Shown here one piece after another: positions 1,200 to 12,804 of a stretch of DNA of 64,000 nucleotides; position 1 is the first letter of the stretch; each line of letters starts with the position of its first letter. Below the pieces are notes generated by a model. That model searched no databases, was not told where the DNA came from, and worked only from the letters and a program-made list of their open reading frames with translations. Both the position numbers and the translations under genes were made by a program. This DNA comes from Bacillota bacterium (GTDB taxonomy: Bacteria; Bacillota; Bacilli; Paenibacillales; NBRC-103111). Location: assembly GCA_023386955.1 (NCBI GenBank), contig JAEWIS010000039.1:1-64000 (forward strand). The letters run 5' to 3'.

Positions 1200-4100
1200 T
1201 TGAAAGCGACAAAAGCAGCCAAATTAACCATCGCCATGCTGCTGGCGCTTCTTGTTGTGTCCGTGTGCGCCCTATTCTTCATACAGCGGGAGGAGCGGGT
1301 TACCCTCCTATTCGCCGTAAGCGCGGATGGTTTCGACCAGGCCGCTTACGACCATTTCAGCCAGACCCTGGCCGCCAACGCGAGCGTGTCGAAACATCCC
1401 TTGGCAGAGTTAAGCCAGCGGCAGTTAAACCGGTATGATTCCATCTATCTGGACTACAATCTGAAAGCGGCCCCCGAGCTCACCGGCGCTGTGGAGAAGC
1501 TGTCCCGGTACGTGGAGCAGGGCGGTCATCTGTTCCTTGAAAATGATTTTGCCGCAGACTTTCCTGCCGCCCTCCTGGGAGGCTCGGAGCTGGTCCGGAT
1601 GGGCTCGCCCACGGAGATTTCCTTTGAATACCCGGACGTCGACCTTCATCTGCAAAACATGCAGCAGGTGTTCCGGCTGTTCGTGGACAGCTTCGCCAGC
1701 CAGAACCAGATGACGGACAGCCAGGCGGCCAACGGCCAATTGAATGCCTTGCCCGGCTACGACTGGGGATATGGCTTGAAGCCTACCACAGCGGAAACCC
1801 TGGTGCGCATGAACGGCGCCAGTGTGATGACCGCCAACCGTTACGGCAAAGGAACCGTGTTATGGTCCAGCGCCCTTTTGCCCACCCACTATTATATTAC
1901 AGGCTTCGATCTGGCCAGCGGGATGGACCCGGAGAAGGGCTTTGCCGAGAAGCAGAAGCAAGCCGCCGGCAGCTACCAGCTGACCCAAGGGGGTACATAT
2001 TTCCGGTTCAAAAATGAGGCTCCCCTTCAGCCTTACTTCCAGTTTGCCTTTGCCACCGCCAACTACCAGCTGCGCAATGCCTATCTGGACTACGTGTCCA
2101 AGGAGAAGCTGGGATACAGCGTCACCAAGATTCATGGCCCTTACGGGCGTCCGGCTATGGCGTACCAAAACCACTTTGAGGTGGCAAGCGCTTATTTCCA
2201 TGATGAAGGGATTCAATGGACCGAGCTGCTGCGCAAGTACAACCAGATCCCTTCCTTCTCCATTGTCCGTTCCTCCTACGAATGGAATGAGTGGTTCGAA
2301 AATCTGACCGTACATCTGAACACGGGCAGCACCCGGGAGCCAGCGTTTATCGGGCAGCTGGAGAATTCCTTCTATGGAAGCGGCGTGCGCATATCCAGTG
2401 AAGGCCGAGCCCTGACACTGGAGAAATACCCGGTCCCGACCCAGTTGGGCGACAAGCTGGATAACCCCTACCGGGCTTATCCGGCATTGGCCGACCTGGA
2501 CGGGGATGGGCGAACAGATTTGGTGGTGGGCAGCGCCAACGGGCAGCTGTATCTCTTCCGCAATCTGGGCAGCCGTCCGGAGGATTATGCCGACCAGCGG
2601 CTTCCGGAAGGGCTGGCTGCTCCTGATTCCTTTGGCAAAAAAGAGCCGCTCCTGAGCATTTCCGGCAAGTCCCTGCAGCTTCCCTCAGGTTATTCGGCCC
2701 CTGCTTTAGGGGACCTGAACGCAGACGGCGTTTTGGATCTGATTGTAGGTGACAAGGACGGCAGGGTATGGGTGGCTTACGGCAAGCAGAACCTTCGCTT
2801 CACCGAGCCGGTGCCCGTGCGGGCAGGTGGTGTGGAGGTGCGGGTGGAAAGCTATGCGGCGCCTGCCCTTGGAGATTATGACGGAGACGGCACGCTGGAT
2901 CTGGTAGTCGGCGACGGCCTGGGCCGGATTTACGGCTACCGCGGAGTGCCCGGAAAATCTGGCCAATGGGAAAAGGGACAGCTGCTGTTCACTCATTCCG
3001 CCCATTATGCCTCCCCTGCCGTCCGGGATATGAACGGAGACGGTGTACCGGATATTGTAACGGGCAGCCAGGACGGGGATATTACGGTTTACATCCGTTC
3101 CCCCGGCGGAAGCTACACGAAACAAGGCACGGTGAACGGAGCCACCTCCAACCAGGTGAACACCAAGGCGCTTGTGGGCGGGCATAATTCCGTGCCGCTG
3201 TGGGCGGACTTGAATCACGACGGCAAGGAGGATCTGGTGGTAGGCCAATTGGAATTCGGTCTGCCTGTCCCGTTGGACGATCCGGACTTCCCTTACCCCG
3301 GCGAGGTGAAGAAATTTGTGGAGTATGCCAAGGCCAACAAGCTGGAGCTGTACCCCCATCTTTTCTTCCACAGCTATCTATCGGATGCCCAGGAAAAACG
3401 GGAAATTGAGCTCCACCGCCAAATGTTCGAAAAGCTGGGTATTCCTTGGACGGCCATGGGCACCAACCAGCATACCTGGCGGATCAACAATACCGACCGG
3501 CTGCAAACCCTGCGTAACGAAAATGAGGCAGGGCTGTGGTTCAACTTCGGCTTCCGGCCTCCCAATAATCCTATGGACCCACAGTACGGCCAGGATTATG
3601 TGTGGAGTATGCCGTTTCTGCTGGAGGACAGCAAGCTTGCGCGGCCCATGGTGCTAAGCTCGCCCAACATGATTTTCCGGGCCAAAGGCTCCGATTACGC
3701 CACGGAGGATATTTACCGGGCTTACGCCGCATTGGATATGCCAATTATTTATTTTGATCATATTGAGTACAAGCTTCCCGGGCAGACCAATCTGCTGCTG
3801 CCTTACGTGACGTTTTTGGACCAGCTGCGCAATACGGAGAATTACAACTTTATGACCGAGCCCCAGCTGGCCCGCTCGGCACTGACCACCCTGAAGACCA
3901 AGGTGCATGTCAAACAAACCTATGCCGCCTGGCTGATGGACAAGGTGAAGAACAAGCTGGGCAAAGGCGCCCATTTGACGCTGACCCTGACCGCCGACAC
4001 CTCGGAGGTTTCCGATGGGCTGGCGGGTGTATACAAGTTTACACCCGGGGTGGCCATCGAAGCGGGCAAACCTTACCAAGGCTCGCCCCTTGGCGTGGAT

Positions 4101-4472
4101 TCCCGGATTTACACCCGGCAGAACGGAACTCTGTATACGGGACTAGGCGAGCCGGTGAAGCTGACCGTGGACTGGAGTCCGGCGGGGCTGCATCTGGAGC
4201 GCAGCAATGTGCCCTTCCGGTGGACGGAGGTGCGGGACGGCGAAGTTACCCTGCAGCTTCTGGACGGCGGCATGCAGCAGGCAAAGATCTACAGCCCGAC
4301 TCCGCTTGTGATTAGCGGCGACAATCTGAAGATTGAGCAAAGCGAAGCCGGCTCGGGCGGGCTGCCCGGACAAACGGGGCAGAATGGGCAGACAACGCCT
4401 GTGGGATACACCTATACGGTTACCCACTTTGGGGAAGCCACCACCGTGACGCTGAAGTGGGCCAAGGATTAA
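1200..4472 (+). CDS. Exported FG-GAP repeat protein with deacetylase-like regions
   Basis: Protein of 1090 aa, TTG start 7 nt after GGAG. Residues about 8-28 form a signal anchor. Residues about 34-250 look like a GATase-type Rossmann domain (YVEQGGHLFLEN; YGKGTVLWSSALLP). Five FG-GAP/VCBS blades with calcium-type D-x-D/N-x-D-G-x-x-D loops follow at about 426-690 (DLDGDGRTD, DLNADGVLD, DYDGDGTLD, DMNGDGVPD, DLNHDGKED). After them comes an alpha/beta region (about 690-960) with an ELYPHLFFHSY segment reminiscent of polysaccharide-deacetylase barrels, then a C-terminal beta region. The order (anchor, Rossmann, barrel, beta domain) loosely recalls PelA-type deacetylases with a propeller inserted. 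That is a weak inference and no catalytic triad was assigned. It is first in the operon with the carrier-protein, ligase and DltD/DltX-like genes, so it probably handles the same envelope polymer. Confidence 0.7.
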   Translation: MKATKAAKLTIAMLLALLVVSVCALFFIQREERVTLLFAVSADGFDQAAYDHFSQTLAANASVSKHPLAELSQRQLNRYDSIYLDYNLKAAPELTGAVEKLSRYVEQGGHLFLENDFAADFPAALLGGSELVRMGSPTEISFEYPDVDLHLQNMQQVFRLFVDSFASQNQMTDSQAANGQLNALPGYDWGYGLKPTTAETLVRMNGASVMTANRYGKGTVLWSSALLPTHYYITGFDLASGMDPEKGFAEKQKQAAGSYQLTQGGTYFRFKNEAPLQPYFQFAFATANYQLRNAYLDYVSKEKLGYSVTKIHGPYGRPAMAYQNHFEVASAYFHDEGIQWTELLRKYNQIPSFSIVRSSYEWNEWFENLTVHLNTGSTREPAFIGQLENSFYGSGVRISSEGRALTLEKYPVPTQLGDKLDNPYRAYPALADLDGDGRTDLVVGSANGQLYLFRNLGSRPEDYADQRLPEGLAAPDSFGKKEPLLSISGKSLQLPSGYSAPALGDLNADGVLDLIVGDKDGRVWVAYGKQNLRFTEPVPVRAGGVEVRVESYAAPALGDYDGDGTLDLVVGDGLGRIYGYRGVPGKSGQWEKGQLLFTHSAHYASPAVRDMNGDGVPDIVTGSQDGDITVYIRSPGGSYTKQGTVNGATSNQVNTKALVGGHNSVPLWADLNHDGKEDLVVGQLEFGLPVPLDDPDFPYPGEVKKFVEYAKANKLELYPHLFFHSYLSDAQEKREIELHRQMFEKLGIPWTAMGTNQHTWRINNTDRLQTLRNENEAGLWFNFGFRPPNNPMDPQYGQDYVWSMPFLLEDSKLARPMVLSSPNMIFRAKGSDYATEDIYRAYAALDMPIIYFDHIEYKLPGQTNLLLPYVTFLDQLRNTENYNFMTEPQLARSALTTLKTKVHVKQTYAAWLMDKVKNKLGKGAHLTLTLTADTSEVSDGLAGVYKFTPGVAIEAGKPYQGSPLGVDSRIYTRQNGTLYTGLGEPVKLTVDWSPAGLHLERSNVPFRWTEVRDGEVTLQLLDGGMQQAKIYSPTPLVISGDNLKIEQSEAGSGGLPGQTGQNGQTTPVGYTYTVTHFGEATTVTLKWAKD

Positions 4473-4589
4473 CTGCAGCAGCCCGATGACCGGCCACCGG
4501 GACCATAGGGGGCTTTAAACGAAAGTGCCACACCTGTACGTGTACCCAGCATTTCCGTTGCTGGCGCTGGTCATCAGGCCATAGGTGAA

Positions 4590-4780
4590 ATTCTAACGGC
4601 GGTCAGAGCCGTTATTCCAGCTAAAAGCAGGCCATTGAAATTCTAACGGCGATGAGCGCCGCTATTTGGAGCAAATGCGTCCGATTGGGTGCCATCAAGG
4701 CCAAATAAGAGCACTGGCTTCCGTTAGAATTGGGAAAGGCCGATTTTTCGCCAAATAGCGGCTCCTGCTTCCGTTAGAAA
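4590..4780. repeat. TAACGG/CTATTT repeat cluster (4 units)
   Basis: Four copies of a unit of about 30 bp: ATTCTAACGG at the start, GCCGTTATT or GCCGCTATTTGG at the end. Forward copies are at 4590-4618 and 4640-4669, inverted copies at 4701-4730 and 4751-4780. The arrangement mirrors 187-325. It lies in the gap of 466 nt between the FG-GAP gene and the carrier-protein gene. Bases 4473-4589 show no other feature. Confidence 0.65.
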
Positions 4781-4803
4781 TGCCGGGTGGATGCTGCGGC
4801 CCC

Positions 4804-4923
4804 AGCGTATGCTTACGATGCGAGTTTTGCTGACGCAAAACTTAGTTTATGCTTACGATGTTGGCTATCCTTCGGATAGCCCAGCTTATGCTTACGAAGT
4901 GAGTTTTTGCTGACGCAAAACTC
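4804..4923 (+). repeat. Three tandem fixed-head/variable-hairpin modules
   Basis: Each module has a head close to AGCTTATGCTTACGAAGT (4804-4821, 4844-4861, 4883-4900) followed at once by a hairpin whose stem differs: AGTTTTGC/GCAAAACT (4823-4842), GGCTATCC/GGATAGCC (4863-4881), and GAGTTTTTGC/GCAAAACTC (4901-4923). The last hairpin ends just before the AGGAGG of the carrier-protein gene, so all three would lie in its mRNA leader. Related modules lie at 47663-47701 and, inverted, at 41826-41863. Confidence 0.7.
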
Positions 4924-4938
4924 TTAGGAGGAATAAAA

Positions 4939-5190
4939 ATGACCGAGATTGCTAACCAACTGGAGGAGCATATCCGCGCCCGCTACGAGATTGATCCGGA
5001 CGACGAGGATTTTTCCCAGAATGTGCACTTGTTCGATTACGGCTTTATCGATTCCATCGGCGCCACCGCTCTGATTGCCCACATCGAAAAAACCTACAAT
5101 CTGCAAGTCACCAACCAGGACCTGATGCTCTACCCCCTGAACACCATCAATGAAATCGCGGCCTTCATCAGCCGCAAGATTGCGAGGTAA
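4939..5190 (+). CDS. Acyl/aminoacyl carrier protein (DltC-like)
   Basis: Protein of 83 aa, ATG start after TTAGGAGG with good spacing. It has the four-helix carrier-protein pattern with the phosphopantetheine site in YGFIDSIGA (Ser39), preceded by the usual acidic first loop. Acidic residues dominate the first half. It overlaps the next gene (TAATG), which encodes a ligase known to load amino acids on carrier proteins. DltD-like, DltX-like and MBOAT genes are also nearby, so it most likely carries an activated amino acid as a phosphopantetheinyl thioester to the membrane, as DltC does with D-alanine. The amino acid itself cannot be read from the sequence. A fatty-acid ACP is less likely given the neighbours. 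Confidence 0.85.
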   Translation: MTEIANQLEEHIRARYEIDPDDEDFSQNVHLFDYGFIDSIGATALIAHIEKTYNLQVTNQDLMLYPLNTINEIAAFISRKIAR

Positions 5191-6392
5191 TGAAAATGGA
5201 ATGCACGGTTTCCCTGGAGGGATTGTCCACCTCCCAATACGGCCAGCTGAAATATGCCTGCGCCTTTGTGGACGAGACCATTACCGGGATTGACATTGAG
5301 GGGGATATTCTGCGCATCACCCACAGCTCACCCCTGGGCAATGCGGTCATCGAGGAACGGGCCAAACGGCTGGCGGAGCGTTTTTCCAAGGGGGATTTCG
5401 GCTTTAAGGAAAACATCCTCTTCGAGCACCGGGTAGACGTTCCCCACCACGAGGACATTATCGCCGAGCTGGTCGAGAAAAAAATCATCAAGGTGCTGGA
5501 GCCCGGCATGTTCATCTTCCGGGAGCCCTTTTCCAGCCTGATGCGGTTTATGGATGATTCCTTCGTGGCCAAGATCGCCCGCCGCTTCGAGGGCTTGAAG
5601 GAGGAGCATTACCCCGCCGTCATCCATGCGGATACCCTGAACAAAACCAACCACTTCACCTCCTTCCCCGAGCATATTCACTTTCTGACCCATCTGCGGG
5701 AGGATCTGGACGTCATCGAGGGTTTCTCCCAAACCATCCGCGAAATCGGCGGCTGGAAGCAGGACGCACCGCTGGACCTAAACGCCAGCATGCCCAAGCC
5801 CAAATTCACCATGAACCCCTCCACCTGCTACCACTGCTATGAGGGACTGCAGGACGAGGTGCTGGAGGGCGACGGCATCACCGTCACCGCCATCTCCAAG
5901 TGCCACCGGTTCGAGTCCCGGAACCATACGGATTTTGGCCGCCTGCTGGACTTTAGCATGCGGGAGATCATCTTCGTGGGCAAACCCGACTACGTCAAGG
6001 AAAACCGCCTGAAGGCCATCGAGTACCTGAAGGAATTGGCTGCCGAGTGGGACGTAGACAGCTGGATGGAAATTGCCAACGATCCCTTCTTCACCAACGA
6101 CTTCCAAGTGAAGGCCTCCTTCCAACGGAACCAGGAGATGAAGTACGAGCTGCGCCTGTCTGTCCCCTATCTGGACAAGTCTATTGCCGCCAGCTCCGTC
6201 AACTTCCACAGCAACACCTTCGGCAATGCCTTCAACATCAAATTCGGCAAACGCAGCGCCGTAACCGGCTGTGTCGGCTTTGGCATCGAACGCTGGGTCT
6301 TTGCCTTCCTGGCTCAATACAGCCTGGACGAGACCCGTTGGCCCGCCGCTTTCCGGGAGCAATATGCGGACTGGCAGAAAAAGCAGTTTTAA
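5190..6392 (+). CDS. Amino acid:[carrier protein] ligase (seryl-tRNA synthetase-like)
   Basis: Protein of 400 aa resembling the stand-alone catalytic core of atypical zinc-dependent seryl-tRNA synthetase. Visible are TCYHCYEG (Cys213, Cys216), a motif-2-like KCHRFES (Cys238, Arg240, Glu242) and class II motif 3, GFGIERW (Glu367, Arg368). It has no N-terminal tRNA-binding coiled-coil domain. Characterised members of this family adenylate a small amino acid (Gly or Ala) and transfer it to a carrier-protein phosphopantetheine instead of tRNA. The start overlaps the carrier-protein stop (TAATG), as expected for coupled partners. An in-frame ATG two codons later is an alternative start. In this operon it takes the place of DltA, a different adenylate-forming fold. 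The amino acid used is unknown. Confidence 0.85.
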   Translation: MKMECTVSLEGLSTSQYGQLKYACAFVDETITGIDIEGDILRITHSSPLGNAVIEERAKRLAERFSKGDFGFKENILFEHRVDVPHHEDIIAELVEKKIIKVLEPGMFIFREPFSSLMRFMDDSFVAKIARRFEGLKEEHYPAVIHADTLNKTNHFTSFPEHIHFLTHLREDLDVIEGFSQTIREIGGWKQDAPLDLNASMPKPKFTMNPSTCYHCYEGLQDEVLEGDGITVTAISKCHRFESRNHTDFGRLLDFSMREIIFVGKPDYVKENRLKAIEYLKELAAEWDVDSWMEIANDPFFTNDFQVKASFQRNQEMKYELRLSVPYLDKSIAASSVNFHSNTFGNAFNIKFGKRSAVTGCVGFGIERWVFAFLAQYSLDETRWPAAFREQYADWQKKQF

Positions 6393-7335
6393 TCCCGGCA
6401 GGCCCTTCTCGAAAGCCGCCTCGCGCACCCGCCGGTACGGCTTCCTGATCGGCCTGGCGGTGTTGTTCCTCCTGGCGGATCTGGCGTTGGCCTGGTGGAA
6501 CCCGATGGAATCCTCCCGGCGCTTCTACAAGAATGACTTTACCAAAACGCTGTACCATCACTCCTGGGCCCGCACCGGCTCCGTGTTCTTCGGAAACTCG
6601 GCGGTGACGGGTGCCTATATGGAGGACAAGTCCTCCCATCCCCTAACGGAGATGGGCCTCTCCTACGGCCGGATCACCGATCTAAAGGCTATCCTGGAGA
6701 AGGGTCTATACCAGGTGAAGGACGAGCTGGTGGTGGGCATTGACGTCCATACCATGATCGACGACATGCAGACCGACCCCACCTACCAGTGGTTCAAAAA
6801 GCCCTATCAGCCTTACATCTATGCATACCGGGATTACTTCCGGGATTCCGGCACGGAGGCGGTGAAGAACCTGTATGCCGGAGCAGTGGAGCTTGATGCG
6901 GGGAAGCTTCTGGACTACCAGCCCAGGTGGATTGATAAGGAGCTGTATTTTGGCCTGAAGGAAAAGGCGTGGATGGCGGAGCGCTGGGACTACTACGATA
7001 AGCTGTGGGGCCATCTGACCCTGCCTGATTTCCGGGAAAATCTCGATGCTCTGGCTTGGGTGGCCGACTACGCGGCCGAGCACGGATTGGCTCTCCGGGT
7101 CATCTGGATGCCGTGGCATAAGGACTTCCCCAAGCCGCCCTATGTAGAACCGCTTAAGGCGGAGGCCAACCGGATTCTGGAAGAGCATCAGACACCGGTG
7201 CTGGACGTAATGGACCGGTATAGCGCAGAATACTTCCACGATCTGGTCCACCTGAACCGGGAAGTAGGGGCTCCCCTGTTTACGAAGGAGGTGGATGAAT
7301 GGCTCCGGTCATTCGCAAAACCGTCGAACTCCTAG
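6364..7335 (+). CDS. DltD-like membrane-anchored SGNH protein
   Basis: Protein of 323 aa from the ATG at 6364, which overlaps the ligase gene by 29 nt (GGGAG ribosome site with short spacing). A longer frame open from 6271 has no better site. One N-terminal membrane segment (YGFLIGLAVLFLLADLALAWW) is followed by an extracytoplasmic domain with SGNH-type marks: block I FFGNSAVTG (Ser79) and the C-terminal DxxH, DLVHLN (Asp293, His296). GNS in place of GDS is also usual for DltD- and AlgX/AlgJ-like partners of MBOAT acyltransferases. Its likely role is handling or transfer of the aminoacyl group to the outer polymer. Overall similarity to DltD cannot be scored here, so the assignment rests on motifs, topology and neighbours. 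Confidence 0.72.
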   Translation: MRTGRKSSFNPGRPFSKAASRTRRYGFLIGLAVLFLLADLALAWWNPMESSRRFYKNDFTKTLYHHSWARTGSVFFGNSAVTGAYMEDKSSHPLTEMGLSYGRITDLKAILEKGLYQVKDELVVGIDVHTMIDDMQTDPTYQWFKKPYQPYIYAYRDYFRDSGTEAVKNLYAGAVELDAGKLLDYQPRWIDKELYFGLKEKAWMAERWDYYDKLWGHLTLPDFRENLDALAWVADYAAEHGLALRVIWMPWHKDFPKPPYVEPLKAEANRILEEHQTPVLDVMDRYSAEYFHDLVHLNREVGAPLFTKEVDEWLRSFAKPSNS

Positions 7336-7409
7336 CCTATCTTATCATGCTGATTCTGGTACTGATGTATTTTACCGGCAAGGGACTATTCATTTATGAG
7401 GGCTTCTGA
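7299..7409 (+). CDS. DltX-like single-pass microprotein
   Basis: Protein of 36 aa. ATG at 7299 sits 7 nt after AAGGAGG and overlaps the end of the SGNH gene by 37 nt. It has a short basic N-terminus, one membrane helix (LLAYLIMLILVLMYF) and the exact C-terminal ending FIYEGF. DltX proteins of Dlt operons are about 45-50 aa, single-pass, and end in an F-x-Y-x-x-F motif (FIYNEF in many species) whose tyrosine has been reported to take part in aminoacyl transfer with DltB and DltD. Here Tyr33 would be that residue. Size, topology, C-terminal motif and position beside carrier-protein, ligase and DltD-like genes all agree. Confidence 0.85.
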   Translation: MAPVIRKTVELLAYLIMLILVLMYFTGKGLFIYEGF

Positions 7410-7426
7410 CCCGATTCCCCCAACCA

Positions 7427-7467
7427 AAAAAGTAAAAAAACCCTTCATCCGCAATCGCGGCTACGGG
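7427..7467 (-). terminator. Terminator for the GNAT gene
   Basis: On the minus strand, AACCC pairs with GGGTT around an inner CCGC-AATC-GCGG hairpin, and a run of seven T follows. It lies just past the GNAT stop at 7515. Confidence 0.6.
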
Positions 7468-7477
7468 TTCCTGGTAA

Positions 7478-7514
7478 GGCAAGTCAATTGAGCATCAATT
7501 GGCTTGTCTTTTCT
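7478..7514. terminator. Bidirectional terminator after the DltX-like gene
   Basis: CAAGTCAATTGA pairs with TCAATTGGCTTG (one G-T pair) around a 3-nt loop, followed by TCTTTTCTTC on the plus strand. It separates the convergent DltX-like and GNAT genes and ends the first Dlt-like operon. Confidence 0.75.
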
Positions 7515-8057
7515 TCATTTTAAACGGCCCATTACAATGGTGTTGTAAAACTGCCCGTCGGAAAGACGTTTATCCCGGCGCAGAAGCCCTTCCTGCTCAA
7601 AACCGAAGGTCTCGTACAGCCGGATTGCCGTGGTATTGGTCTCCAGCACATGCAGGCCAATCTTCTCCACACCTGCGGCATCCGCCCAGGAGACGGTTTC
7701 CTGCAGAAGATTCCTGCCTACCCCGTATCCCCAGAACTCCTTCAGGATACAAATGCCGAACTCTACTTGATGGGAAAGCCGCTTCAAAGCACTCCCCTGG
7801 CACCTGCAAAAACCCAGCAGCCTGCCTTCAGCCTCCGCTACCAGAAATAAATTCCGGGCTTCCTCCGTGTCTGTACGGATGATCTCCTCAAACCCCGCCG
7901 GGTCAATAAAACCCTCGCCCCGCTCCCGGTCCATAAATTCCGTCTCTCCGTCGATCTGAAGCCGGATGTCGGACAATGCCGCGGCATCCCCGGGAAGGGC
8001 AGAACGGATAACATAGCTCATTCCTTTAACTGAAAAAGCTGCAGGTTGGATCTTCAT
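7515..8057 (-). CDS. GNAT family N-acetyltransferase
   Basis: Protein of 180 aa. The start is the ATG at 8057, 6 nt after AAGGAG. The frame is open 28 codons further upstream but without a good ribosome site. It has the GNAT fold: an N-terminal strand YVIRSALPGDAAALSDIR, the acetyl-CoA loop EFWGYGVGRNLL (Q/R-x-x-G-x-G/A), and the C-terminal NTTAIRLYETFGFEQEGLLRR segment typical of RimJ/RimL-like or PhnO-like acetyltransferases. The substrate is unknown. It lies on the opposite strand between the two parts of the Dlt-like system, with the HD-domain gene upstream, and there is no sign that it works with that system. Confidence 0.85.
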   Translation of the reverse strand: MKIQPAAFSVKGMSYVIRSALPGDAAALSDIRLQIDGETEFMDRERGEGFIDPAGFEEIIRTDTEEARNLFLVAEAEGRLLGFCRCQGSALKRLSHQVEFGICILKEFWGYGVGRNLLQETVSWADAAGVEKIGLHVLETNTTAIRLYETFGFEQEGLLRRDKRLSDGQFYNTIVMGRLK

Positions 8058-8162
8058 CAGCTGCTCCTTTTTGAACCGTTGTGGGTTACCAGCCCTATTG
8101 TATAGCGGTTCTCCACCCGGTTCAAGCCTCTCCACCTTCATCAGTGGGTGAATCCTTTCCTT

Positions 8163-8792
8163 TCATTGGCTGAGCGCTTCCTCGGTAATCCGTTTAATGT
8201 CGATAGGCGAAAGAGACTCTTCGTTGACCATATCAGGCAGGATGTGCTTCAGGAAATAATCCACACACGCCAGAGGTATATGCTTGATCTTCACCAGCGC
8301 CTCCCGGTACATCTTCACAAATTCCTTCTCCGTATTGCCCCGCTGCAGCTCTGCAAACGCCTCGTACACCTGGTCCAGCTTGTCCGCCACTTCCAGAATA
8401 AGCCCCTCTACCGACTGATCCTTGCCTTCCCGCAATTGGTTGAAGAAAATCGGGCGGAACTCCTCGGGAATATGCTCATTGATGAAGTGATGGACCATCC
8501 CCTCTTCCACCTGCTGGATCAGGGAACGCAGCTCCATGGACGAATGCTTCACCGGCGTTTTGATATCCCCGATGAAGATTTCCCCGTAATCATGGCTGCT
8601 GGTGATTTCATAAAGTTTTTTCCAATTCACGGGAGTGCCGTGCATTTCTTCGATGTCCGCCAGAGTTTTGGCATATTGGACCACCTTCCAGGAATGGGCC
8701 GCCACCGTATGCTCCTCAAACTTAAACTTGCCGGGGCAGCGGTAAATCCGCTCCATTTCGTTCAGCGACCGGAAATACGTGTGAATTCCCAT
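8163..8792 (-). CDS. HD-domain phosphohydrolase, YfbR-like
   Basis: Protein of 209 aa. I chose the ATG at 8792, about 10 nt after AAGGAG. An in-frame GTG at 8801 is too close to the ribosome site. Metal ligands of the HD superfamily are visible: the His in EEHTVAAHS, the HD pair in ITSSHDYGEIFIGD, and a later Asp in LEVADKLDQVYEAF. The family includes YfbR 5'-deoxynucleotidases, which dephosphorylate deoxyribonucleoside monophosphates. The activity here is inferred from the family. It lies 105 nt upstream of the GNAT gene on the same strand and may share its transcript. Confidence 0.78.
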   Translation of the reverse strand: MGIHTYFRSLNEMERIYRCPGKFKFEEHTVAAHSWKVVQYAKTLADIEEMHGTPVNWKKLYEITSSHDYGEIFIGDIKTPVKHSSMELRSLIQQVEEGMVHHFINEHIPEEFRPIFFNQLREGKDQSVEGLILEVADKLDQVYEAFAELQRGNTEKEFVKMYREALVKIKHIPLACVDYFLKHILPDMVNEESLSPIDIKRITEEALSQ

Positions 8793-8903
8793 CGATGCCA
8801 CTCTCCTTTTTTACCTGATGTAAGAGCAGTATACCAACACCGTGTTAGCGGCGGATTAATGGAGGGTCTGTACTGTGTAAAGAGGGTTTGCACCCCGGCT
8901 GCA

Positions 8904-8944
8904 CAAAAAAACCGGCAGCGGCTGGTAAGCAGCCAACTGCCGGG
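8904..8944 (-). terminator. Terminator of the SLH-peptidase gene
   Basis: On the minus strand, CCGGCAG (8943-8937) pairs with CTGCCGG (8918-8912) around an inner GGCTG/CAGCC hairpin, and seven T follow. It begins 27 nt after the peptidase stop. Confidence 0.85.
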
Positions 8945-8970
8945 TATAGACGACACATTTAAACTTCAAA

Positions 8971-11424
8971 TTAAGGATGCAGATGACGGTCCAGGAACTT
9001 CTCCAGTGCACGGTAGAAATCCAGCTGGTTCTCCAAATTAAGGAAGCCATGGCCTTCATCCTTCTTCAGCATGTACGGCACATCCACACCGCGTTCCTTC
9101 AGCGCCTGAACGATTTGATCGGATTCCGCCTGCTTCACCCGGGGGTCATTGGCACCCTGGGCTACGAAAAGAGGCGCCTTGATTTGGTCCACATGGAACA
9201 GGGGCGAAATCGCCTCCAGCATTTCTTTATCCTTCACCGGATCCCCCATCCGCTCGTGGAACAGCTCACGTTCGGATTCCCAATACGGAGGCAGGGATTC
9301 CAGCAGGGTAAACAGGTTGGACGGACCAACATAGCTGACACCTGCGGCATATACGTCAGGCGTAAAGGTCAATCCGGCCAACGCGGCATACCCGCCGTAG
9401 GAGGCGCCGTAGATGGCCACCCGGTCGGCATCCACGATGCCTTGATCCACCAGCCATTCCACACCGTCGGTAAGGTCATTCTGCATGGCCTTGCCCCACT
9501 CCTTGTTGCCGGCATTCAGGAAGTCCTTGCCGTAGCCGGTGGAGCCGCGGAAGTTCACCTGCAGCACCGCATAGCCGCGGCTGGCCAGGAATTGCACCTC
9601 CGGATTGTAGCCCCACATATCACGGGCCCAGGGTCCGCCATGAGGGTTGACCACCAAAGGCAAATCCTTGGCTTCCTTGCCCTTGGGCAGAGTCAGGTAG
9701 CCGTGAAGCGTAAGGCCGTCGCGGCCTTTGAAGGTGACGGGCTTCATGTCCGCCAGCTTGCTTTCGTCCAGCCAATAGGAGAGCTCGGCAATCTTTTCTA
9801 ACTCGCCGGTTTCCGCATTGTAGGTGTAGTCTACACCCTTGTTCTTGTCATTGTAAGCCTGGAAGCGGAAGTTGCCCTTCTCATCCGGGCTGCCGAGAGC
9901 AATTTCCTTGCCGGGCAGCTCCTTGCGGATTTTGTTGTAGGCCTCCTCCAGCTTGGAGTCAAAGAAGGTATAGTGAATTTTATCCGTGATATAGAGAGCG
10001 GCTACCAGGGTTTTGGTGGCGCGGGACGATACAGCTCCCGACACATCCACATCCGGGTGGGAAAATACGGTTTTGACCACCTTGTTGGCGGAGGGATCGA
10101 ATTCCACCAACGCCGCCTTGTCCGCGCCCAGGTTGGACATGGCGTACAGATTTTTGTTGTCATTGGTAAACATCAGCGGAGCGAAGGTTTCCCCCAGCCG
10201 GGTTTCCAGAAGCGGCTTGAAGGCATCCTCCTCCTTCTCGCGGTAAAGCAGCGAGGAGATGTTGCCGTCGCTGGAAATGGCAATCCGCAGCTTGCCGTTA
10301 TTGTCCGTCATCCAGCCGGTAATATTACCCGGGTTCTCTGCGGCCAATACGGTTTCACCGGTGTCCATATTGACCCGGTACACGTCGAAGATCCGCGGGT
10401 CACGTTTGTTCATGCCGATCAGCACCTGATCCGGAACCTCCGGCAGGAGATCAATCAATTGGGAGGTGGTATTCTCATAGGGAGTCAGATCACGCTGCCC
10501 CTTGCCGTCGATGCCCACCACCAGCAGGTGGTAATTTTCATCCCCGCCGGTGTCCTTGGCATAAATCAGCCGGTCATTGGATACCCAGGCAAATCCCTGG
10601 ATGCTGCGCTCGGTTTCATGGGTAAGCTGCACCGCATCCTTTTCCTGCCCGACTTCCATCACAAACAAGTTGAGACGGTTGTTTACAGGCTGAACAAAGG
10701 CCATATGCTTGCCGTCCGGGGACAGCTGAAAGCCTTGCTGGTCGGATTCCCGGAAGAAGTCCTCCAGAGGGATGGCCCCCGGAGTGGCTACGTCCAGTCC
10801 AAGTGTCATATACAGAGCACGTGCGAATTCAGCCTTGGTAACTACGGTCTGGGGAGCAAAATTCTGTCCGTCCCAGATAAAATGCTGCTTCAGCTTCAGC
10901 GCATCCGCCGCATGGGCAGCCGAAATCGCCTGTCCGTCTGCATAGGAGGTTTGAATGCCGTTGTCATTCAGCTGGAAGGCCCGGCTGAGCAAAGAAGCCA
11001 GCTGCTCCCGGGTCAGCGCGGCATCAGGCTGATAGCCGGTGTCGCCCCCCTGCACGATGCCTTGTGCCCGGAGGGCATAAATGGCAGGCGCCGCGGCATT
11101 CTCCGACGTGACATCCGGGAAGCCGGTGAGGGCTTCAGGTGCCTTCAGCTGAAGGGCCTGCTGCAGCAGAACAGCCGCCTGGGCACGGGTCATGGGGGCG
11201 GTTGAATTTTGCAAATCCTCGGTATATTGTATGTACCCTTGGGTAATTAACGCGCGCATGTATTGGCCGCCGTCATTAACAAGCGATGTTGCCTGGGCCT
11301 GGTTCTGAACCTCCGGTGCTGCGGATGCAGCTTGGGCAGCCGGCAAATAAGAAGTCGCGATAAGTGCCGAAAGCAGAATGCCGATGCTGATTTTTCGCAT
11401 GGATTGAAGCGGATGCTTAAACAA
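8971..11424 (-). CDS. SLH-anchored S9 family prolyl oligopeptidase-like peptidase
   Basis: Protein of 817 aa. TTG start at 11424, 7 nt after AGGAGG. An ATG eight codons in (MRKISIG) is the alternative. A signal peptide (to about residue 33, AAQA-ASA) is followed by three SLH domains (about 45-210), which bind pyruvylated secondary wall polymer. A seven-bladed propeller region (about 225-540, repeats such as LSPDGKHMAFVQ) follows, then an alpha/beta hydrolase domain. The catalytic triad is Ser675 in GASYGGY, Asp760 in QGANDPRV and His792 in DEGHGF, all intact. It is therefore a cell-surface-tethered serine exopeptidase or acylaminoacyl peptidase. It sits between the two parts of the Dlt-like system on the other strand. 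Its terminator lies at 8904-8944. Confidence 0.88.
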   Translation of the reverse strand: MFKHPLQSMRKISIGILLSALIATSYLPAAQAASAAPEVQNQAQATSLVNDGGQYMRALITQGYIQYTEDLQNSTAPMTRAQAAVLLQQALQLKAPEALTGFPDVTSENAAAPAIYALRAQGIVQGGDTGYQPDAALTREQLASLLSRAFQLNDNGIQTSYADGQAISAAHAADALKLKQHFIWDGQNFAPQTVVTKAEFARALYMTLGLDVATPGAIPLEDFFRESDQQGFQLSPDGKHMAFVQPVNNRLNLFVMEVGQEKDAVQLTHETERSIQGFAWVSNDRLIYAKDTGGDENYHLLVVGIDGKGQRDLTPYENTTSQLIDLLPEVPDQVLIGMNKRDPRIFDVYRVNMDTGETVLAAENPGNITGWMTDNNGKLRIAISSDGNISSLLYREKEEDAFKPLLETRLGETFAPLMFTNDNKNLYAMSNLGADKAALVEFDPSANKVVKTVFSHPDVDVSGAVSSRATKTLVAALYITDKIHYTFFDSKLEEAYNKIRKELPGKEIALGSPDEKGNFRFQAYNDKNKGVDYTYNAETGELEKIAELSYWLDESKLADMKPVTFKGRDGLTLHGYLTLPKGKEAKDLPLVVNPHGGPWARDMWGYNPEVQFLASRGYAVLQVNFRGSTGYGKDFLNAGNKEWGKAMQNDLTDGVEWLVDQGIVDADRVAIYGASYGGYAALAGLTFTPDVYAAGVSYVGPSNLFTLLESLPPYWESERELFHERMGDPVKDKEMLEAISPLFHVDQIKAPLFVAQGANDPRVKQAESDQIVQALKERGVDVPYMLKKDEGHGFLNLENQLDFYRALEKFLDRHLHP

Positions 11425-11578
11425 CTAATCTCCTCCTTCGTGAATGTGTCCCGTCCGTTACGCCCGCTATGAAGCGGACAAGCTTGGACAGACTCCTTCA
11501 TTATACGTCCAAACCCCCAGATCGTTCCAATTTTTCAGGAAAAACCATTCCGCCGGGAGGATGCTGCCGAAGCCCCCG

Positions 11579-11607
11579 TTAACAGCACTGCCGAAAAATG
11601 CTATACT
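11579..11607 (+). promoter_or_regulatory. Sigma-A promoter of the MBOAT gene (copy of the operon promoter)
   Basis: TTAACA (11579-11584), a 17-nt spacer, TATACT (11602-11607). Bases 11592-11619 repeat 1117-1144 exactly over 28 nt, reaching past the -10 box toward the transcription start. The flanks differ, so it is not one large duplication. Confidence 0.78.
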
Positions 11608-11646
11608 ACTTTTATTGCCTTCGTTAGGAATGAGGAGATTCGACAC

Positions 11647-12804
11647 ATGTGGTATTTGAATATGACGGCTGTGCTGGCCATTGCCGGCATGTCCGTGCTT
11701 ATGGGGCTGACCCGCAGGCTGCCCGGACAGAAGCGATGGCTGCTTTTGGCCTTCAATCTGGCCTTTATCGGATTGTACAGCCAGCGGCTGCTGGTCTTCT
11801 ACGCGGTGTATACGCTGGTCAACTATCTGTTGTTTGTGTTTCTGGCCCGCCTTGAGCGGGGGAAGCTGTTTTGGTTTATCCTGTTTCTTGCCCTGAATGT
11901 GGGAGGTGTGGTCCTCCTTCGCCTGGCGGATATGGAGATCTTCCAGCATCCGGTATTGGGCACCCTGGTCACCATCGGAATCATCTATAATGTACTGAAA
12001 GCCATCGACGCTCTGTACTTTGCTTATTTCATCGGGCGGGACGCCATCTGCAAGCCGGTGGACTATGCCAACTACCTGCTGTTTGTGCCCACCTTCACCT
12101 CCGGTCCGATTCTTAAGTTCCGGGATTTCATGGCGGATACCAAGGTTCCGTATCAGGTGGATGCACCCATGGCCGAAGCTTGCGTGAAACGGATCATCCT
12201 GGGCATGTTCAAAAAAATCGTCCTGGTCACCTGGATGACCACCGCCTTTGACCATGTGTCGTCGGGCGAGCTGAACACCTTTACCTCGTTGTTTCTGATG
12301 GTGTGGTTCTACATCCTGATCTTCTTCGACTTCTCCGGATATTCGGACATTGCAGTAGGCTTCGGACGGCTGTTCGGCTACCAAGTGCCGGAGAACTTCA
12401 AACGGCCCTTCATGTCCCCCACCCTGACCCAATATTGGCGCAACTGGCATGCCACTCTGGGTGACTGGTTCCGGGATCACATCTATATGTTTTTCTCCCG
12501 GAAATCCCCCTCCAAGTGGACCGGCGCCGGGTTGTCCGTCCTCATTATGGTGCTCATCGGCCTGTGGCACGGCTTTACCTGGCTCTATGTGGCCTGGGGA
12601 GTTTACCACGGCGTCATCATAGCGGCAGAATCTCTGTTGAAGAAATCGCTGGTTAATCGCAAAAAGGTGTCCAAGCTTTACTTTTACTGGCGCTGCTTCC
12701 TGACCCAATCCATTGTGACCCTGGCGGTCATCGTATACTGCCCTAATCATGAAATCGTCATCCGCATTTATAAAGGCCTGCTTCATTTCCCCTCCTTCTT
12801 CTGA
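11647..12804 (+). CDS. MBOAT family O-acyltransferase (DltB-like)
   Basis: Protein of 385 aa, close to DltB length. The ATG is 9 nt after GAGGAG. It is polytopic, with about ten hydrophobic segments. Family marks in order are SGPILKFRDF, YWRNWHATLGDWFRDHIY (His268) and the catalytic-region LWHGFTWLYVAWGVYHG (His308). DltB moves D-alanine from DltC across the membrane toward teichoic acid together with DltX and DltD. Here the carrier, ligase, DltD-like and DltX-like genes lie 4 kb upstream under an identical promoter block, so this is very probably their membrane partner. By itself the sequence cannot tell which acyl group or polymer is used. It forms a one-gene unit with its own terminator. 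Confidence 0.88.
   Translation: MWYLNMTAVLAIAGMSVLMGLTRRLPGQKRWLLLAFNLAFIGLYSQRLLVFYAVYTLVNYLLFVFLARLERGKLFWFILFLALNVGGVVLLRLADMEIFQHPVLGTLVTIGIIYNVLKAIDALYFAYFIGRDAICKPVDYANYLLFVPTFTSGPILKFRDFMADTKVPYQVDAPMAEACVKRIILGMFKKIVLVTWMTTAFDHVSSGELNTFTSLFLMVWFYILIFFDFSGYSDIAVGFGRLFGYQVPENFKRPFMSPTLTQYWRNWHATLGDWFRDHIYMFFSRKSPSKWTGAGLSVLIMVLIGLWHGFTWLYVAWGVYHGVIIAAESLLKKSLVNRKKVSKLYFYWRCFLTQSIVTLAVIVYCPNHEIVIRIYKGLLHFPSFF

What the first reader, a model, noticed from the sequence alone, without database searches (positions are those of the whole stretch)
4939..12804. Dlt-like aminoacylation system that uses a seryl-tRNA-synthetase-like ligase instead of DltA
A carrier protein (Ser39), an amino acid:carrier-protein ligase with class II motifs (Cys213/216/238, Arg240, Glu367, Arg368), a DltD-like SGNH protein, a DltX-like microprotein and a DltB-like MBOAT together supply every role of the Dlt pathway. 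The activating enzyme comes from an unrelated fold. The aminoacyl-carrier products of this ligase family have had no clear physiological destination, so an operon linking it to DltX/DltD/MBOAT partners suggests one: esterification of an extracellular polymer with a small L- or achiral amino acid. The FG-GAP exported protein would be the polymer-side partner.
Basis: partly seen in the sequence, partly recalled or inferred. Interest (0 to 1): 0.9.

Follow-up and report, generated by a model that had tools for sequence, protein, structure and literature searches.

The report
Dlt-like pathway with synthetase-type activator
A conserved six-gene cluster in Paenibacillus bacteria looks like the machinery that hangs amino acids on cell-surface polymers, but the usual activating enzyme is replaced by a relative of the enzymes that load amino acids onto tRNA; this gives that enzyme family a testable purpose.

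Summary
It is intact elsewhere: all 80 fetched relatives have FG-GAP protein, carrier, ligase, DltD-like and DltX-like genes in that order, and the MBOAT follows in all 77 loci that reach it, within 137 nt in 75. Among 392 sampled Paenibacillales genomes, all 98 with this ligase have the DltD-like gene; one genome has that gene alone. Proposed catalytic residues are conserved. The FG-GAP protein models as a PelA/Agd3-like deacetylase with an inserted propeller, so an amino-sugar polysaccharide is my favoured acceptor. None of 24 other ligase loci examined showed an MBOAT nearby. Most likely: a Dlt-type extracytoplasmic aminoacylation pathway with a non-homologous activator. Amino acid, polymer and loading of this carrier are untested. 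I found no description in print within the library searched.

The parts
1200..4472 (+). Exported protein: N-terminal TM helix, Rossmann/ThuA-like domain, PelA/Agd3-like deacetylase barrel interrupted by an FG-GAP beta-propeller, C-terminal beta domains; start codon (TTG) uncertain
4939..5190 (+). Carrier protein, DltC-like, phosphopantetheine Ser39 (HLFDYGFIDSIG)
   Evidence: PP-binding 2e-10; 35% identity over 48 aa to the carrier of a canonical Paenibacillales dlt operon; Ser39 in 81 of 81
5190..6392 (+). SerRS-fold amino acid:carrier-protein ligase; zinc site C213/E259/C361, motif 2 R240, motif 3 R368 (numbered from 5190; conserved start 5196)
   Evidence: NCBIfam PRK07080 139 bits and type-2 SerRS 144 bits, both under cut-off; Bll0957 best PDB match
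6364..7335 (+). DltD-like protein: N-terminal TM helix plus extracytoplasmic SGNH domain, S79, D293, H296
7299..7409 (+). 36-aa DltX-like microprotein, one TM helix, C-terminal acyl-shuttle motif FIYEGF (FxYxxF), overlaps the DltD-like gene
   Evidence: Pfam DltX 15.7 bits (cut-off 25); 81 of 81 end FIYE[GKDN]F
7476..7510 (+). terminator-like hairpin after the DltX-like gene (window-specific end of the unit)
   Evidence: pattern match only; 15 found against 10.0 expected
7515..11424 (-). Three genes that are not part of the system and interrupt it in this sublineage: GNAT 7515-8141, YfbR-like 8163-8801, S9 peptidase 8971-11424
   Evidence: matches between DltX and MBOAT only in the window, L001, L002 and L077 (S9 named from its sequence, no family search)
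11579..11607 (+). promoter-like site in front of the displaced MBOAT gene (TTAACA-17-TATACT)
   Evidence: pattern match only; 5 found against 5.1 expected
11647..12804 (+). DltB-type MBOAT, H268 and H308 at DltB His289/His336; no FxYxxF motif of its own at the C-terminus
   Evidence: TIGR04091 LTA_dltB 1.8e-51, under cut-off; only PDB hits are DltB, 2e-36; both His in 77 of 78, the exception being a broken copy

Best explanation
This is a Dlt-type extracytoplasmic aminoacylation pathway whose activating enzyme is of another fold. (1) The SerRS-fold ligase makes an aminoacyl-AMP from a small amino acid (Gly, Ala or Ser; inferred) and moves it to the phosphopantetheine on Ser39 of the adjacent carrier protein. 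(2) The DltB-type MBOAT takes the aminoacyl group from the carrier through His268/His308 and passes it across the membrane to Tyr33 of the DltX-like microprotein (FIYEGF). (3) The acyl-Tyr hands it to Ser79 of the SGNH DltD-like protein. (4) That protein esterifies a surface polymer. The co-encoded PelA/Agd3-like protein works on the same polymer, so it is probably an amino-sugar-containing polysaccharide rather than a poly(glycerol phosphate) wall teichoic acid. Shown here: the parts, their conserved linkage, co-occurrence, residue conservation and predicted folds. Inferred: every reaction step, the amino acid and the polymer.
For: Conserved gene order in 80 of 80 fetched relatives, MBOAT in 77 of 77 that reach it. 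98 of 98 close-ligase genomes have the DltD-like gene, 1 genome has it alone, 293 have neither, of 392. Carrier stop and ligase start within 10 nt in 78 of 81. Proposed catalytic residues conserved in 77 of 78 to 81 of 81 (one Asp 79 of 81). Ligase closest to Bll0957 by profile. MBOAT matches only DltB in PDB, with both catalytic His. Low dN/dS for all six genes in four pairs. Carrier protein plus separate FxYxxF microprotein is described as distinguishing Dlt from CoA-fed MBOAT/SGNH systems (passages of PMC12148441). SGNH fold with DltD as top Foldseek hit. PelA/Agd3-like fold of the first gene. TagF-type polymerase in 1 of 39 carriers.
Against: No biochemistry. Linkage is within one order and could be largely vertical inheritance, so the counts are not independent events. 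The ligase misses the NCBIfam cut-offs for both known families, and by single sequence is as near to type-2 SerRS as to Bll0957. The DltD-like protein fails the Pfam DltD model that canonical DltDs of the same order pass at 242-283 bits; hhalign against them gives 23% probability, and the Foldseek match to DltD has TM-score 0.40 and rmsd 12.7. DltX-like is under Pfam's cut-off, which canonical DltXs of the order pass (29.5-45 bits). The PelA match is a 10%-identity superposition of a model (rmsd 6.9); Foldseek itself ranked PelA 24th behind FG-GAP propellers and others. PelG is in only 8 of 39 carriers (4 of 39 non-carriers), so the polymer is not generally Pel. LTA synthase was not tested, so LTA is not excluded. 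In this window the MBOAT is unlinked from the rest.
Confidence: 0.72

Rival explanations
1. Same pathway logic, but the product is ordinary: the system puts D-Ala (or another amino acid) on lipoteichoic acid, as a Dlt substitute in bacteria that lack DltA; the PelA-like protein is a passenger or acts separately.
For: Canonical DltA was not found in 388 of 392 Paenibacillales at E<=1e-125, at most three candidates scored per genome. The carrier resembles DltC and the MBOAT resembles DltB.
Against: The four genomes with canonical DltA (three over the cut-off) are all carriers of this system too, and the three such regions read in full are complete dltXABCD operons, so the two coexist. The PelA-like gene is part of the unit in 80 of 80. 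aa:CP ligases are listed as using Ala, Gly or Ser (table passage of PMC9437257); that these are L- or achiral is recalled.
Confidence: 0.17
2. Two unrelated activities share the cluster: MBOAT, DltX-like and DltD-like proteins O-acetylate the polymer from acetyl-CoA, while the aminoacyl-carrier feeds another product.
For: MBOAT/SGNH systems other than Dlt are described as acyl-CoA-fed (PMC12148441 passages). Four annotated ligase relatives on plasmids sit in clusters with acyl-CoA dehydrogenase, NRPS or ATP-grasp genes.
Against: The MBOAT is DltB-like and lacks a C-terminal shuttle motif, a separate DltX-like protein having it instead. No seventh gene recurs that could consume an aminoacyl-carrier, and none of the six is an acyl-CoA dehydrogenase, condensation domain or ATP-grasp.
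Confidence: 0.07
3. The ligase is a SerRS paralogue acting on tRNA or as a regulator, and its place beside the MBOAT set is incidental.
For: Almost equal NCBIfam scores to type-2 SerRS and aa:CP ligase (144 and 139 bits) and a near tie by single sequence.
Against: Alignment to type-2 SerRS starts only at SerRS residue 158-189, so its large N-terminal domain has no counterpart; canonical SerS in 18 of 18 carriers; profile favours Bll0957; tightly linked to a carrier gene.
Confidence: 0.02
4. The grouping is a chance neighbourhood read into an operon.
For: In the window three opposite-strand genes separate the MBOAT from the other genes.
Against: Same six genes in the same order in every locus that reaches the MBOAT; the separation is confined to the window and close relatives.
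Confidence: 0.02

Closest known systems
Dlt pathway (dltXABCD; D-alanylation of teichoic acids)
   Same: Carrier protein, DltB-type MBOAT with two catalytic His, FxYxxF microprotein, membrane-anchored SGNH protein of DltD-like fold
   Different: No DltA (AMP-binding adenylation domain); a class II synthetase fold activates instead. DltD-like protein does not match the DltD sequence family. Gene order differs. Extra PelA-like gene. TagF-type polymerase nearly absent from the 39 carriers tested
Amino acid:[carrier protein] ligases (Bll0957 / NCBIfam PRK07080)
   Same: SerRS-type catalytic core, zinc ligands Cys/Glu/Cys, no large tRNA-binding domain, adjacent carrier protein
   Different: Extra N-terminal region of about 80 residues; under the family cut-off; partner genes MBOAT/DltX/DltD rather than the acyl-CoA dehydrogenase, NRPS or ATP-grasp genes seen beside four plasmid relatives
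PatA/PatB, AlgI/AlgX-J and B. cereus PatA1/PatB1 (MBOAT-SGNH O-acetylation)
   Same: MBOAT paired with an SGNH protein to acylate an extracytoplasmic polymer; acyl-Tyr shuttle shown for PatA (PMC12148441 passages)
   Different: Those are described as CoA-fed, with the shuttle motif fused to the MBOAT and no carrier protein (PMC12148441 passages)
PelA / Agd3 polysaccharide deacetylases
   Different: FG-GAP propeller inserted in the barrel; no Pel synthesis genes recur next to it; PelG in 8 of 39 carriers
Type-2 (archaeal) seryl-tRNA synthetase
   Same: Catalytic core and zinc site
   Different: No counterpart of its N-terminal domain; the 18 carriers tested have a normal SerRS

Membership tests
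Dlt pathway (as a system) | DltA-type AMP-binding D-alanine ligase | tested here: not met
   no DltA gene in the conserved unit; 0 of 39 carrier genomes over the TIGR01734 cut-off (40 asked, one not held; G018 just below); 4 of 392 Paenibacillales at E<=1e-125, in separate dlt operons where read
Dlt pathway (as a system) | Carrier protein with phosphopantetheine Ser | tested here: met
   PP-binding 2e-10; Ser39 in 81 of 81; DltC equivalog models hit far below cut-off
Dlt pathway (as a system) | DltB-type MBOAT with His289/His336 equivalents | tested here: met
   TIGR04091 1.8e-51 but 176 bits against a cut-off of 375; only DltB in PDB; both His in 77 of 78
Dlt pathway (as a system) | DltX microprotein with C-terminal FxYxxF | tested here: met
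   81 of 81 end FIYE[GKDN]F; but Pfam DltX sub-threshold, 15.7 of 25 bits, where canonical DltXs of the order score 29.5-45
Dlt pathway (as a system) | DltD family protein (sequence family PF04914) | tested here: not met
   no DltD match at E<=10, only FadA at 0.19, no NCBIfam match; positive control: three canonical DltDs of the order score 242-283 bits; hhalign to them 23% probability, C-terminal DxxH region only
Dlt pathway (as a system) | SGNH fold with Ser/Asp/His | tested here: met
   S79 in 81 of 81, H296 in 80, D293 in 79
Dlt pathway (as a system) | D-Ala ester on teichoic acid | not testable with these tools
   needs chemistry
aa:CP ligase | Profile match to the curated family | tested here: inconclusive
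   PRK07080 139 bits against cut-off 357; SerRS model 144 against 611; profile search ranks Bll0957 first, single sequence near tie
aa:CP ligase | Zinc ligands equal to Bll0957 Cys131/Glu176/Cys279 (recalled; an offset of 20 assumed for the tagged chain) | tested here: met
   C213, E259, C361 by HMMER alignment; C213 and E259 in 81 of 81, C361 in 80 of 81
aa:CP ligase | No tRNA-binding domain; carrier gene nearby | tested here: met
   alignment to type-2 SerRS begins after its N-terminal domain; carrier gene within 10 nt in 78 of 81
aa:CP ligase | Loads an amino acid on carrier phosphopantetheine | not testable with these tools
   ATP-PPi exchange and mass spectrometry needed
PelA/Agd3-like deacetylase | Fold | tested here: met
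PelA/Agd3-like deacetylase | Metal-binding catalytic residues | tested here: inconclusive
   H720 in 80 of 81, H724 in 78 of 81, N324/H325/E327 in 79 of 79 that reach them; the classical first-motif Asp (recalled) is not obvious

The most novel reading that the evidence does not exclude
A second, independent carrier-protein-fed route for putting amino acids on the outside of the cell: a class II aminoacyl-tRNA-synthetase relative charges the carrier with a small L- or achiral amino acid, and a DltB/DltX/DltD-type relay esterifies it onto an amino-sugar exopolysaccharide trimmed by a PelA/Agd3-like deacetylase, in bacteria that mostly lack both DltA and TagF-type teichoic acid polymerases. It would be the first envelope-polymer destination for products of the aa:CP ligase family.
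Probability: 0.45. Interest if true: 0.87.

Novelty: new variant of a known kind. Interest (0 to 1): 0.76.

Why it matters
SerRS-like aa:CP ligases have known chemistry (listed in a table passage of PMC9437257) but no settled purpose (recalled). Here one is tied, by a strictly conserved gene unit, to a complete Dlt-type transfer relay. If true, the relay can be fed by an unrelated activating enzyme, so the activator does not define the pathway. It predicts ester-linked amino acids on a surface polymer in a quarter (98 of 392) of the sampled Paenibacillales, an order in which canonical DltA was found in only 4 of 392. Surface-charge control by amino acid esters is a known defence against cationic peptides, and many Paenibacillus make such peptides (both recalled), so a function is easy to test.

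Tried and rejected
Window gene order taken at face value would have argued against the finding, since the MBOAT is unlinked; relatives showed that to be derived. Idea that carriers use this because they lost Dlt: not supported as a specific trade-off, because almost all sampled Paenibacillales lack DltA whether or not they carry the system, and the four with DltA all carry it (at most three DltA candidates were scored per genome). Idea that the polymer is Pel, from the PelA-like fold: PelG in 8 of 39 carriers and 4 of 39 non-carriers, so not Pel in general; no Pel genes were seen to recur next to the unit (ORFs of 100 aa or more grouped by similarity, most groups not named). TagF-type polymerase (PF04464): 1 of 39 carriers, 4 of 39 non-carriers. 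Search for similar ligase-MBOAT pairs elsewhere: 0 of 20 distant Paenibacillales ligase loci by profile at E<0.01 (17 from the 34 genomes that have only a distant ligase, 3 second copies in carriers; the other 17 genomes were not fetched) and 0 of 4 plasmid relatives by their annotation (of 93 records; PLSDB tables are incomplete). Phylum-wide sample: 2 of 398 genomes, the centre genome and a distant ligase. The sequence search of the PDB with the DltD-like profile gave only two weak xylanase matches, and with DltX-like nothing. DltD paralogues in G149 and G003 (full length) and G091 (97-aa piece) stand without MBOAT, carrier or ligase matches in the 16-17 kb read. LTA synthase was not tested. 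No tree of the ligase against type-2 SerRS was built. The promoter scan was no better than shuffles. 13 of the 93 relatives were not kept by the tool and not seen.


Full report
What is there. The + strand of the window carries, in order, an FG-GAP protein (1200-4472), a carrier protein (4939-5190), a SerRS-fold ligase (5190-6392), a membrane-anchored protein with a GNSA motif (6364-7335) and a 36-residue microprotein (7299-7409) whose last six residues are FIYEGF. An MBOAT gene lies at 11647-12804. Between them three unrelated genes run on the minus strand: GNAT and YfbR-like and an S9-type peptidase (named from its sequence).

Conserved neighbourhood. One scan of the genome collection with the ligase alignment confirmed 93 relatives; the best 80 were kept, all titled Paenibacillus or Paenibacillaceae except one Gordonibacillus. 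In all 80, FG-GAP protein, carrier, ligase, DltD-like and DltX-like genes lie in this order on one strand. The MBOAT follows in 77; in the other three (L002, L059, L080) the fetched contig ends first. Of 78 places with an MBOAT (window included), 75 have it within 137 nt of DltX; the three exceptions are the window, L001 and L077, which share inserted genes. Carrier and ligase are within 10 nt in 78 of 81; the DltX-like gene overlaps the DltD-like gene in 80 of 81. All 81 microproteins end FIYEGF (54), FIYEKF (25), FIYEDF (1) or FIYENF (1). Apart from these six genes only chromosomal flanks recur widely: a peptidase U32 gene, a xylose-isomerase-like gene, uvrA and uvrB.

Control for chance. 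In the window 1 of 561 ORFs of 25-80 aa has an FxYxxF tail; in the 80 loci 71 of 14,171, every one with FIYE (some copies of this gene lie in ORFs longer than 80 aa because of upstream start codons). Pairwise dN/dS for four pairs lies between 0 and 0.18 for the six genes.

Co-occurrence. In 392 sampled Paenibacillales genomes the close ligase is in 98 and the DltD-like gene in 99; the overlap is 98, and the one extra (G149) is a lone paralogue with no MBOAT nearby. These genomes are related, so this is strong linkage rather than many independent gains. Another 34 genomes have only a distant SerRS-like ligase. Of 20 distant loci read, none had an MBOAT, DltD-like or DltX-like gene by profile. 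Four plasmid relatives sit near carrier genes: Streptomyces, Azospirillum and Priestia megaterium with an acyl-CoA dehydrogenase, Streptomyces also with NRPS genes, both Priestia with an ATP-grasp gene; none has an annotated MBOAT. So the link to a Dlt-type relay looks particular to this clade of the ligase family, within what was sampled.

Relation to Dlt. DltA over the TIGR01734 cut-off is in 0 of 39 carriers tested (40 asked, one not held). At E<=1e-125 it is in 4 of 392 genomes, three over the cut-off, all four carriers. Three of these regions were read: each has dltX (tails FVYNEF, FIYNGF, FIYTEF), dltA, an MBOAT, a carrier and a DltD; Pfam confirms DltD at 242-283 bits and DltX at 29.5-45 bits. 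They are positive controls that the window proteins do not pass. The window MBOAT is 26-28% identical to those DltBs with both His shared, and the DltX alignment shares the F-x-Y-x-x-F residues. The two systems coexist in these genomes, so this is not simply a replaced dlt operon. All 18 carriers tested have canonical SerS, so the ligase is not the housekeeping enzyme.

Active-site residues. Across 81 orthologs: carrier Ser39 81; ligase C213, R240, E259 81, C361, E367, R368 80; DltD-like S79 81, H296 80, D293 79; DltX-like Y33 81; MBOAT H268, H308 77 of 78. The misses are in broken copies (L070, L079) and one D-to-E (L059). The zinc site maps to C213/E259/C361 when Bll0957 Cys131/Glu176/Cys279 (recalled) are placed with a 20-residue offset assumed for the tagged chain.

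Mechanism. The relay proposed is ligase to carrier to MBOAT to DltX-like Tyr33 to DltD-like Ser79 to polymer, by direct analogy to the Dlt mechanism described in PMC12148441. Each step is inferred from homology, fold and residue conservation; none is shown by experiment.

Literature. Nine library searches were answered; the ones aimed at this link listed no paper that, by title, term counts and abstract opening, connects a SerRS-type carrier ligase to MBOAT, DltX or polymer acylation. PMC12148441, PMC9437257, PMC11035591, PMC9487903, PMC9338922 and PMC10142376 were seen as passages only. The two most relevant papers (the DltX mechanism paper and the original aa:CP ligase paper) are not held, so absence from print is limited to this library.

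One search was added; the composition of the 20 distant loci, the genes inserted in L001, the Foldseek rank of PelA, the TM-score of the DltD match and the single-sequence near tie were corrected or added.

Noticed in passing
window 7515-11424; L001, L002, L077: Minus-strand genes are inserted between DltX and MBOAT in one sublineage, in differing sets: YfbR and S9 peptidase in L001, GNAT and YfbR in L077, all three in L002 (which ends before an MBOAT) and in the window.
   Followed up: partly
window 4586-4923: Non-coding stretch before the carrier gene holds several short direct and inverted repeats (units of 28-33 nt; TTTTGCTGACGCAAAACT twice), possibly mobile or regulatory.
   Followed up: no
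L111, L112, L113 (genomes G218, G018, G114): Complete canonical dltXABCD operons in a few Paenibacillales, all in genomes that also carry the synthetase-fed unit.
   Followed up: partly
L108 7278-8306, L109 8231-9235: Lone paralogue of the DltD-like gene in two genomes in a similar context without MBOAT or carrier matches.
   Followed up: partly
G042 C1:536109-539872, G051 C27:40892-44644: Two distant SerRS-like ligases in opposite orientation about 3 kb apart; G375 has four such matches.
   Followed up: no
L059 4176-4880, L075 11416-12654: The DltX-like ORF of L059 and the DltD-like ORF of L075 have long low-complexity N-terminal extensions as open frames.
   Followed up: no
L070, L079: Frame-broken copies of ligase, DltD-like or MBOAT genes in two genomes; sequencing error or decay not decided.
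   Followed up: no
L015 2516-4369: A diguanylate cyclase (GGDEF, PAS, 5TM) gene upstream of the unit on the same strand; a group of this kind recurs in 14 loci.
   Followed up: no
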